NCBI GenBank assembly: GCA_022823225.1
Contig: JAJDXM010000092.1
Coordinates: 1 to 64,000, forward strand
DNA length: 64,000 nt
Reading direction: 5' to 3'
From: Gemmatimonadota bacterium
GTDB lineage: Bacteria; Gemmatimonadota; Gemmatimonadetes; Longimicrobiales; Gaopeijiaceae
The first letter of the stretch is position 1; every line of letters begins with the position of its first letter. Below, piece after piece: positions 13,366 to 54,031 of the stretch. The notes beneath the pieces were generated by a model. The model did no database searches. It saw nothing but the letters and a program-made list of their open reading frames with translations, and had not been told where the DNA came from. The translations under genes and the position numbers were made by a program.

Positions 13366-14421
13366 ATGACGAACGACAACCGCGACCAGCGGCCCCGAAT
13401 CCGGCTGGCGAAGCTCTCGCACGGCGCCGGCTGAGGGTGCAAGCTCGGCCAGGCCGAGCTGGCGCAGGTGCTGCGCCACCTTCCGCCGTCCGATGATCCC
13501 CGTGTGCTGGTCGACGCCGGGGACGACGCCGCAGTGTATCGTCTCGCCGACGGAAGGGCGCTGGTCGTCACGCTCGACTTCTTCACCCCGATCGTCGACG
13601 ACCCCTACGACTTCGGGCGGATCGCCGCGGCCAACGCGCTATCCGACGTGTACGCCATGGGGGGGCGCCCGCTCTTCGCCCTCAACCTGCTGTCCTTCCC
13701 GCGAAACCTCCTGCCCGAAGGACTGGCCGAGGAGATCGTCCGGGGCGGTGCCGACAAGGCGCGGGAAGCGGGGGTTCCCGTCGTCGGCGGCCACTCCATC
13801 GATGACGCCGAGCCCAAGTACGGGATGGTCGCGGTCGGCGAGGTCGACCCCGGGAAAATGCTCTCCATCGACCGGGCCCGTGCGGGCGACGATCTCGTCC
13901 TGACCAAGCCGCTGGGGAGCGGAATCGTGGCGACCGCGGTGAAGGCGGGGACGTGCCCCGACGAGGTTCTCGCCGACGCCGTCGCCACCATGGCCCGCCT
14001 GAACCGTGGCGCCGCCGAAGCCGCGCTCGCGGCCGGCGCCCGCGCGGCCACCGATGTCACCGGGTACGGCCTGACCGGACACCTCGGCAACATGGCGCGC
14101 GCTTCGCGGGTCTCGGCCCACATATGCGCAGCCAGCGTCCCCCTGCTCCCCGGCGTCCGCGCTCTCGCCGAAGCGGGCCACGTCCCGGGTGGCACCCGCC
14201 GCAACCGGGAGGACTGCGCCGACGCCGTAAGCTACGAAGCGGACGTGGACGAAACCGGCCGAACGCTCCTCGCCGACGCGCAGACCTCCGGGGGGCTCCT
14301 GATTTCCTGCCCGCGCGACAGGACGCCGACTCTGCTGACTGAACTGGTGGCCAGGGGGGAGCAAGCACACCAGGTCGGCGAAATGCGTGACGGACCTCCC
14401 GGGAGAATCGTGGTCTCGTAG
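13366..14421 (+). CDS. selD: Selenide, water dikinase SelD containing selenocysteine
   Basis: Makes selenophosphate from selenide and ATP, the selenium donor for selenocysteine and selenouridine. The true start is ATG 13366; an in-frame TGA at 13432-13434 encodes residue 23 in 'LSHGAG-U-GCKLGQAEL', exactly where SelD has its catalytic Cys or Sec, followed by the essential Lys (K26). Conventional gene calling would start at 13468 and lose the active site. The rest is full length (351 aa) with 'DDAAVYRLADGRALVVTLDFFTPIVDDPYDFGRIAAANALSDVYAMG' features in pattern and 'GGLLIS' near the end. A perfect stem-loop lies 7 bases after the TGA. Confidence 0.95.
13442..13460 (+). promoter_or_regulatory. 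Candidate bacterial SECIS hairpin of selD
   Basis: AGCTCGGCC at 13442-13450, one A, then GGCCGAGCT at 13452-13460 form a perfect inverted repeat beginning 7 bases after the selenocysteine TGA. In practice the loop would open to about 5 bases (CCAGG) containing a G pair. Position and size suit a bacterial SECIS recognised by SelB. Whether SelB binds it is inferred. Confidence 0.6.
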
Positions 14422-45165: not shown

Positions 45166-46581
45166 TCAGTGGCCGTGCGGCATTGCAGCGGCCGTGTCGG
45201 ACTCCTCCTCCGCACCGCCCAGCAGCTGCGAAATGGCAGCCCGCAGATTCGCGTCCGAGTCGATCAGAAACTGGGACGAGACCACGATCATCTCGCCCTC
45301 GGCGAGTCCCGACGCCACCTCCTGCATCCCCTCGCTCTCGGTCCCCAGCACCACCTCGCGCGGTTCGAAGACCCCGCCCCCCCTCGCCACCACCACCACG
45401 GCGCGCGTGCCGCTGTGCAGGATCGCCTCGGACGGCACCATCACCGCATCGACCGCCCCGCTCGTCCGCACCGTCACGTTGACGTACATCATCGGCCGGA
45501 GCCGCAGGTCCGGGTTGGCGACCTCGACGAACGCGGTCAGCGTTCTCGTCTGCGGGTTCACCGCGGGCCGGAAGAAGAGGATTCGCCCACTCCACTCCCG
45601 CCCCGGGAAGGCGTCGGCCTCGATCACGACCGCCTGGCCCTCGCGAACGTGTCGCAGATCATCCTCGTAGAACTCCGTCTCGGCCCAGAGGGTCGAGTGG
45701 TCGGCGATCTTGAGGATCGTCATGCCGGGGGCAAGATTCATCCCCTCCATCGAGTCGCCCATCTTCTCGACGATGAACCCCGATGCGGGCGCAAAGACCC
45801 GGACGGTACGCGTGACTTCACCCGACTCGGCGAGTTCGTCGATCTGCTCGGGGGTCATGTCCCAGTACAGGAGCCGCTCCCGGGAGGCCTCGAGGAGGGA
45901 CTCGGCGCGCTCGACGGCCTCTGGATACGCCCCGCCGTCGCGCAGACGTCCCACGTATTCCATCGCGCCCAGGAACTCGCGCTGCGTCGTGACCAGCTGA
46001 GGGCTGTAGATCTCGAAGAGCACGTCGCCCCGCTCGACCGTTTCGCCGACGTTGTTGACGCTGGCGCGCTCGATCCAGCCCTCGTACTTGGTCTGCACCG
46101 AGACGACCCGCTCCTCGTTGTGCGCGAGGATGCCGACCGTGCGGATCGAGACCGGCAGCGCGCCGCGGTGCACCATGGCCGTGCGCACCGCGAAGTTCTG
46201 CAGGAAGGCCTGGCTGACCCGGATGCCGGTGCCGGCGCCTTCCCCCGGGTCGCCAGCGGCAGGCGCCTCGTCCGCGTAGACCGGGACCAGGTCCATCCCC
46301 ATCGGGGACTTCCCCGGCCGGTCCGAGGTGTAGTTCGGGTCCATCGGGGCCCGCCAGTAGAGGATTTCGCGTTCGTCGGGGTCGCGCTCGCCGGCGGGCG
46401 GATCCATGCCCGGATCGGCCGCTCCGGGCATGGCCATCCCCTCGTGGTCCGCCATCCCCATGGGCTGGGCCATCTCCGGGCCATCCGACCCGCCCCGCAT
46501 CAGCAACGCGGTACCGCCGGCCCCAACCACGATGCCGGCCACAACGAAGACCGCCCCGCGCATTCTGTTTCTGTCTCTCAT
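45166..46581 (-). CDS. cusB: RND efflux periplasmic adaptor (CusB type)
   Basis: A 471-aa membrane-fusion protein. ATG 46581 is preceded by GGAGGAGGG and overlaps the outer-membrane gene stop (ATGA). A single N-terminal membrane helix ('AVFVVAGIVVGAGGTALLM') is followed by a Met/His-rich stretch ('MAQPMGMADHEGMAM'), suited to Cu(I)/Ag(I), and then a heavy-metal-binding domain 'YWRAPMDPNYTSDRPGKSPMGMDLVPVY' in pattern. The adaptor body has 'GWIERASVNNVGETVERGDVLFEIYSPQL'. It delivers metal to CusA and links the pump to the outer-membrane channel. Confidence 0.92.
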   Translation of the reverse strand: MRDRNRMRGAVFVVAGIVVGAGGTALLMRGGSDGPEMAQPMGMADHEGMAMPGAADPGMDPPAGERDPDEREILYWRAPMDPNYTSDRPGKSPMGMDLVPVYADEAPAAGDPGEGAGTGIRVSQAFLQNFAVRTAMVHRGALPVSIRTVGILAHNEERVVSVQTKYEGWIERASVNNVGETVERGDVLFEIYSPQLVTTQREFLGAMEYVGRLRDGGAYPEAVERAESLLEASRERLLYWDMTPEQIDELAESGEVTRTVRVFAPASGFIVEKMGDSMEGMNLAPGMTILKIADHSTLWAETEFYEDDLRHVREGQAVVIEADAFPGREWSGRILFFRPAVNPQTRTLTAFVEVANPDLRLRPMMYVNVTVRTSGAVDAVMVPSEAILHSGTRAVVVVARGGGVFEPREVVLGTESEGMQEVASGLAEGEMIVVSSQFLIDSDANLRAAISQLLGGAEEESDTAAAMPHGH

Positions 46582-53512: not shown

Positions 53513-53572
53513 GCGCCGCCCATGCAGGGCGCCCACAATTCCCAACGAACCATTGACTGGAGCAATTCCCCG

Positions 53573-54031
53573 ATGAACGACATCGTCTACGAAGCGGATA
53601 TCCGAATCGAGCGCACCCGCGGCCCGCACCGCCTCGCCTGGCTCCCGGCCCACGACGGCCCCGTCGAGTTCGGCGTTCATGGCGCAATCGCCGAGCACTA
53701 CGGCGTGCGCCTCAAGACCGAGACAACCACCACGCTCGACTACGTGATCGCCGCGACCGGAGGCTGACTCGTCGGCACCTTCGGAGGCGTGCTGGAGGCA
53801 CGCGGGATCGCAGCGTCGGACGGCAGGCTGGTCGCTGAAGTCAAGGGCAGGGTCGGCAAGGAGGAAGGCGTACTCGTCGTCCGCCATATCCATGTGAAGT
53901 ACCTGTTGCGGGCCGCCGACGAGGACGAGGCGGCGATTGCGAGGGCCTACGACCTGCACCCCATGCGGTGTCCGGTCTACCGGACGCTCCACAAATGCAT
54001 AGACATCACGACGGAGCTGGCGATTCTGTAG
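53573..54031 (+). CDS. OsmC-family selenoprotein
   Basis: OsmC proteins are thiol peroxidases that reduce organic hydroperoxides. ATG 53573 follows GGAG. The frame meets TGA at 53765-53767 and continues in frame to TAG 54031; across it the sequence reads 'DYVIAATGG-U-LVGTFGGVLEARGI', where ordinary OsmC has Cys at U. Residue 65 is therefore Sec, and the partner Cys is C133 in 'MRCPVYRT', giving the usual two-thiol site. Full length is 152 aa, normal for the family. Read without Sec it looks like two broken genes. A stem-loop lies 19 bases after the TGA. Confidence 0.9.
53787..53803 (+). promoter_or_regulatory. Candidate bacterial SECIS hairpin of the OsmC gene
   Basis: GCGTGC-TGGAG-GCACGC forms a perfect 6-bp stem with a 5-base G-containing loop, starting 19 bases after the selenocysteine TGA. 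Distance and loop size fit bacterial SECIS elements. It differs in sequence from the selD hairpin, as expected since these structures are coding too. SelB recognition is inferred. Confidence 0.55.

What the first reader, a model, noticed from the sequence alone, without database searches (positions are those of the whole stretch)
53573..54031. OsmC-family protein with selenocysteine replacing the catalytic cysteine
Two frames split by TGA at 53765 join into one full-length OsmC with 'TGG-U-LVGTFGG'; the resolving C133 is intact and a hairpin follows 19 bases later. Gene callers would report two fragments. OsmC-like selenoproteins are known from marine metagenomes but remain rare; together with selD this shows a functional Sec system.
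Basis: partly seen in the sequence, partly recalled or inferred. Interest (0 to 1): 0.75.

Follow-up and report, generated by a model that had tools for sequence, protein, structure and literature searches.

The report
Selenocysteine-containing OsmC-type redox enzyme
A small bacterial antioxidant-type enzyme (OsmC fold) is encoded with a UGA codon read as selenocysteine in its active site; the same UGA and the RNA hairpin that recodes it are conserved in well over a hundred bacterial species from four phyla, so the gene is a real selenoprotein that standard annotation would split in two.

Summary
Window 53573-54031 encodes one 152-residue OsmC-fold protein with an in-frame TGA at codon 65. The genome has a complete Sec system: selA, selB, tRNA-Sec(UCA), and a selD in the window that is itself a TGA-containing selenoprotein. 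All 168 homologous loci of the first survey (Gemmatimonadota, Acidobacteriota, Actinomycetota, Calditrichota) have TGA at this codon. A hairpin 19 nt after the TGA (GCGYGCU-GGA-RGCRCGC) is conserved with compensatory changes beyond what the protein demands. In a wider Actinomycetota survey a few homologues have Cys instead; four of those five genomes lack selA and their hairpins have eroded. Probable function: selenol/thiol peroxidase of the Ohr/OsmC type, Sec65 attacking and Cys133 resolving (inferred). Sec insertion is near certain from comparative evidence; the chemistry is untested.

The parts
53559..53562 (+). Shine-Dalgarno-like GGAG, 10 nt before the ATG
   Evidence: sequence; inference from spacing
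53573..54031 (+). Sec-OsmC gene, 152 residues plus TAG stop, one in-frame TGA
   Evidence: PF02566 49.2 bits; homologues start at the same Met
53630..53632 (+). Arg20, invariant; candidate equivalent of the Ohr catalytic Arg (inferred)
   Evidence: invariant column in A1
53765..53767 (+). TGA codon read as selenocysteine, Sec65
   Evidence: TGA in 168/168 loci; Cys only in some Actinomycetota homologues, mostly from selA-less genomes
53787..53803 (+). Bacterial SECIS hairpin: 7-bp stem GCGUGCU/GGCACGC, loop GGA at 53794-53796
   Evidence: conserved stem, compensatory changes, GG of the loop invariant in 133/133 distinct sequences, exceeds codon-shuffle null
53969..53971 (+). Cys133 (followed by Pro134), presumed resolving cysteine
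   Evidence: invariant in A1
13366..14421 (+). selD, selenophosphate synthetase, itself with in-frame TGA (HGAG-U-GCK)
   Evidence: TIGR00476 387 bits; sequence
13432..13434 (+). TGA (Sec) codon of selD, residue 23

Best explanation
The gene encodes a genuine selenoprotein of the OsmC/Ohr fold. UGA 53765 is decoded as selenocysteine by SelB and tRNA-Sec bound to the hairpin 19 nt downstream (strongly supported by comparative evidence, not shown biochemically). Sec65 takes the place of the peroxidatic cysteine of OsmC/Ohr and Cys133 that of the resolving cysteine (by alignment and fold). The protein most likely reduces organic hydroperoxides or related electrophiles: the selenolate attacks the peroxide, the selenenic acid condenses with Cys133 to a Se-S bond, and a dithiol reductant such as a lipoyl protein or thioredoxin restores it (inferred from the family; probability about 0.6 on its own). 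It stands alone, outside any conserved operon. The confidence below is for the selenoprotein claim with Sec65/Cys133 as the redox pair, not for the substrate.
For: Complete Sec machinery in the genome. TGA at the Sec codon in every one of 168 loci. Co-occurrence with selA: 108 of 115 carriers against 174 of 280 non-carriers, Fisher p = 9e-12, and 26 of 28 further carriers, nearly all of other phyla, over the selA cut-off. SECIS hairpin: 7/7 pairs formed in 92% of 133 distinct sequences, compensatory pairs at 26-36 (C-G/U-A) and 27-35 (G-C/A-U), Watson-Crick pairing 0.838 against 0.759 +/- 0.005 in a null that shuffles synonymous codons, 0 of 500 as high. It meets the published bSECIS model (PMC13188914). 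Natural control: 7 Actinomycetota homologues have Cys there; 4 of the 5 genomes with TGA-less forms lack selA, against 3 of 36 TGA genomes (Fisher p = 0.0016), and their hairpins have lost the GG loop and one to four base pairs. AlphaFold model (pLDDT 89) matches OsmC/Ohr structures: 2onf Z 15.4, 1ml8 Z 13.8, OsmC and Ohr Z 12-13. U65 and C133 are invariant.
Against: Single-sequence folding of the region is no more stable than shuffled sequence (z 0.2 to 0.5), so the hairpin rests on comparison. Seven Gemmatimonadota carriers and a few others have no detected selA, probably because of draft genomes. No expression, selenium labelling or enzyme assay exists; peroxidase activity is extrapolated, and sequence identity to solved OsmC/Ohr proteins is only 6-20%. 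At least one hydroperoxide-resistance protein, Francisella FTN_1133, turned out to lack thiol peroxidase activity (abstract of PMC4069020).
Confidence: 0.9

Rival explanations
1. The TGA is a true stop: the gene is a decaying pseudogene or a sequencing/assembly error for TGC/TGT.
For: Two short ORFs are what a gene caller would see.
Against: The same TGA in 168 loci from independent assemblies and four phyla; purifying selection on both sides; conserved hairpin.
Confidence: 0.01
2. TGA is decoded by another route: genome-wide reassignment (for example to Trp) or near-cognate readthrough.
For: None specific.
Against: TGA ends the immediately upstream gene (53510) and the gene at 45168, so it is a stop here; the alternative at this site in relatives is Cys, not Trp; the tRNA-Sec/SelB system is present.
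Confidence: 0.02
3. A Sec protein of the OsmC fold, but not a hydroperoxidase: for example a disulfide or persulfide reductase, an electrophile scavenger or a redox sensor.
For: The best structural neighbours are TA0195 (2onf) and YhfA (1ml8), described only as putative or hypothetical; no conserved neighbour such as a peroxide regulator was seen; the invariant acidic residue, Asp56, is at -9 from the Sec as the Glu of YhfA, while the Ohr Glu is at -10 (Glu51 and Cys61 in Xylella Ohr; cysteine number from memory).
Against: The Sec/Cys pair and an invariant Arg near the N-terminal strands are kept as in OsmC/Ohr.
Confidence: 0.35

Closest known systems
Published OsmC-like selenoprotein (Sargasso Sea / GOS; COG1765, PF02566; PMC1088965, PMC2398784, PMC13188914)
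   Same: OsmC domain, Sec in place of the OsmC active-site Cys, SECIS hairpin downstream.
   Different: Published motif UxxT; here UxxGT, with Gly invariant at +3 and Thr at +4. Published counts are 3 and 5 genes; this subfamily is in over a hundred genomes. The published sequences are not held here, so no direct alignment was possible.
NCBIfam NF041052 OsmC_like_Se
   Same: Named as an OsmC-related (seleno)protein; weak match to the core.
   Different: 14.3 bits for this protein and 33.6 for the paralogue, against a cut-off of 95; no match over cut-off in 59 relatives.
YhfA-type OsmC (1ml8, NF008009)
   Same: Only solved structure found by sequence (phmmer E 0.0014); GG before the redox residue; acidic residue at -9.
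   Different: About 20% identity; Cys not Sec; below the NF008009 cut-off (15.5 of 138 bits).
OsmC and Ohr peroxidases (1qwi, 1n2f, 6ebg)
   Same: Fold (Z 12-13); two redox residues at equivalent places of the fold (alignment-level inference).
   Different: Sec replaces the peroxidatic Cys; 11-14% identity; the acidic residue lies one position nearer the redox residue than in Ohr.

Membership tests
Bacterial selenoprotein (SelB/SECIS dependent) | In-frame UGA aligned with a redox Cys of homologues | tested here: met
   UGA in 168/168 loci; Cys in some Actinomycetota homologues
[quoted passage not shown]
   26 nt, loop GGA, 7 bp; covariation (model; data)
Bacterial selenoprotein (SelB/SECIS dependent) | selA, selB, selC, selD in the genome | tested here: met
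Bacterial selenoprotein (SelB/SECIS dependent) | Selenium in the product | not testable with these tools
   needs 75Se labelling or mass spectrometry
OsmC superfamily (PF02566) | OsmC domain over the curated cut-off | tested here: met
   49.2 bits, cut-off 27.5; fold Z up to 15.4
OsmC superfamily (PF02566) | Two redox residues, one in the central helix and one further on towards the C-terminus | tested here: met
   U65 in helix 54-76 and C133 between helices 116-132 and 134-139, both invariant
NCBIfam NF041052 OsmC_like_Se | Score over the curated cut-off of 95 bits | tested here: not met
   14.3 bits
Published OsmC-like selenoprotein (UxxT) | Redox motif UxxT | tested here: not met
   +3 is Gly and +4 Thr in 75/75 thinned sequences
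Ohr/OsmC peroxidase | Hydroperoxide reductase activity with a dithiol reductant | not testable with these tools
   no assay
Ohr/OsmC peroxidase | Catalytic Arg and Glu of Ohr (Arg19/Glu51 in Xylella Ohr, PMC5962072) | tested here: inconclusive
   Arg20 and Asp56 invariant but no residue-level superposition was available

The most novel reading that the evidence does not exclude
A large, so far unlisted OsmC subfamily in which selenocysteine is the rule and cysteine the exception, spread over Gemmatimonadota, Acidobacteriota, Actinomycetota and Calditrichota, often as two Sec paralogues per genome, whose chemistry may differ from known Ohr/OsmC peroxidases, and whose SECIS stem forces linked amino-acid changes (Val..Ala, Ala..Val, Ala..Ala) on either side of the loop.
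Probability: 0.4. Interest if true: 0.5.

Novelty: new variant of a known kind. Interest (0 to 1): 0.42.

Why it matters
The gene is likely to be missed by ordinary annotation (two fragments) in well over a hundred species, so the selenoproteome of several abundant environmental phyla is probably under-counted. The subfamily offers a clean comparative test of Sec-Cys exchange: Cys forms appear mostly where selA is gone, with the hairpin decayed, and the hairpin leaves a visible mark on the protein sequence.

Tried and rejected
Single-sequence folding as proof of the SECIS: not significant for this gene (z about +0.2 to +0.5), though significant for the paralogue (z -2.6 to -2.8); replaced by comparative tests. 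Rfam scan of the window at gathering thresholds: nothing. Conserved gene neighbourhood: none beyond genus level (SufS/SufU-like genes and an RsgA-like GTPase upstream in one genus only, named by eye), so no functional hint. Tree polarity (Sec to Cys or the reverse): all Sec rows plus the Actinomycetota Cys rows form one clade (99) and the Cys rows group together (87), but the root is on very long branches and the direction is not resolved. dN/dS upstream values for L028 and L030 are an indel artefact and were ignored.

Full report
Observation. The window holds, on the + strand, ATG 53573 to TAG 54031, 152 codons with one internal TGA at 53765-53767. A GGAG lies 10 nt before the ATG. The frame on each side of the TGA alone gives 81 and 80 residue ORFs; joined, the protein matches Pfam OsmC at 49.2 bits (cut-off 27.5).

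Can the genome insert Sec? Yes. In the window's own assembly (4.19 Mb, 97 contigs, 96% complete) selA scores 470 bits on C41, selB 307 bits on C22, and a tRNA-Sec 79.6 bits on C73, called tRNA-Sec with anticodon UCA by ARAGORN. selD is in the window at 13366-14421 (TIGR00476, 387 bits) and itself carries an in-frame TGA at 13432 just before GCK, the usual Sec/Cys site of SelD (motif from general knowledge). TGA also serves as a normal stop, for example for the gene just upstream (53510), so the code is not reassigned.

Is the TGA conserved? A search of 395 genomes of the phylum found this protein or its paralogue in 115 genomes at E <= 1e-8; the listed matches carry one TGA each, except one fragment that ends before the site. 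A scan of one genome per species gave 80 loci in Gemmatimonadota, Acidobacteriota, Actinomycetota (Acidimicrobiia), Calditrichota and unnamed bacteria. Of 297 genomes of the Acidobacteriota sample 25 carry it, all with TGA. Codon-level extraction gave TGA in 168 of 168 loci, with 137 distinct sequences over the 72 nt from the TGA on (some loci are the same genome reached by two tools). Both sides of the TGA are under purifying selection.

The hairpin. Numbering the TGA 1-3, bases 23-29 pair with 33-39 around the loop 30-32. Among 133 distinct 60-nt sequences all seven pairs form (G-U allowed) in 92%; loop G30 and G31 are invariant; pairs 26-36 and 27-35 switch between C-G and U-A and between G-C and A-U. 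When synonymous codons are shuffled within each column among sequences with the same amino acid, the Watson-Crick fraction falls to 0.759 (sd 0.005) against 0.838 observed, 0 of 500 as high; after thinning at 90% identity 0.760 (sd 0.007) against 0.827. The pairing even links amino acids: GTG..GCA (Val..Ala), GCA..GTG (Ala..Val) and GCG..GCG (Ala..Ala) make up 71 of 75 thinned sequences. Distance and loop fit the published bacterial SECIS model (PMC13188914). For this gene alone the folding energy is unremarkable, which is why the comparison matters.

A natural control. In the Actinomycetota sample 42 of 346 genomes have a match; most have TGA, but eight matches that cover the site, in five genomes, do not. 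Seven of the eight have Cys (TGC/TGT) at this codon; one has Asp and has also lost Cys133. selA is undetected in four of those five genomes and present in 33 of 36 TGA genomes (Fisher p = 0.0016). The Cys forms' hairpins have lost the GG of the loop and one to four of the seven pairs. In the home phylum selA is found in 108 of 115 carriers and 174 of 280 others (p = 9e-12).

The paralogue. The same genome has a second OsmC with TGA at C55 (L002; 33% identity to the first), with 54 matches at over 50% identity to it in 200 phylum genomes, and with the same hairpin at the same distance; and a Cys-only OsmC at C35. In the tree all Sec forms and the Actinomycetota Cys forms make one clade apart from other OsmCs of the phylum (SH-aLRT 99); the direction of the Sec-Cys change is not resolved.

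Fold and mechanism. An AlphaFold model from 27 homologues has mean pLDDT 89. Its best matches are OsmC-like TA0195 (2onf, Z 15.4), YhfA (1ml8, Z 13.8), then OsmC and Ohr (Z 12-13). Invariant residues include Arg20, Asp56, Sec65, Gly68-Thr69, Arg77, Arg124 and Cys133-Pro134. By homology Sec65 is the attacking residue and Cys133 the resolving one; hydroperoxide reduction with a dithiol reductant is the likely activity, known for Ohr (PMC5962072, PMC3469484; abstracts). That step is inference. No conserved neighbours help.

Relation to what is known. OsmC-like selenoproteins were reported from the Sargasso Sea (3 genes) and GOS (5 genes) with motif UxxT (PMC1088965, PMC2398784) and are listed so in the 2026 review (PMC13188914). 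The present family has UxxGT without exception in the thinned set, and scores 14 bits with NCBIfam OsmC_like_Se, cut-off 95, with no over-cut-off match in 59 relatives. I therefore call it a distinct subfamily of a known kind. No paper found in the held library reports OsmC selenoproteins in Gemmatimonadota or Acidobacteriota, but the library is partial.

Noticed in passing
window 13366-14421: selD is itself a selenoprotein gene: in-frame TGA at 13432 in HGAG-U-GCK.
   Followed up: yes
L002:1483-1941 (- strand; G000 contig C55): Second Sec-OsmC paralogue with the same hairpin (GCGCACU GGA GGUGCGC), conserved across the phylum.
   Followed up: yes
window 53787-53803 and homologues: The SECIS stem forces linked amino-acid changes (Val..Ala / Ala..Val / Ala..Ala) at codons 8 and 11 after Sec.
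   Followed up: partly
L190, L192, L195, L198: Actinomycetota Sec forms with loop letters CGA or GGA and a shifted stem (GTGCC..GGCAC), apparently a variant SECIS register.
   Followed up: no
L215: Homologue with Asp at the Sec site and Ser in place of Cys133: both redox residues lost, in a genome that also has a Cys form.
   Followed up: no
L002:2041-2112: Contig C55 ends in a long run of C, probably an assembly artefact.
   Followed up: no
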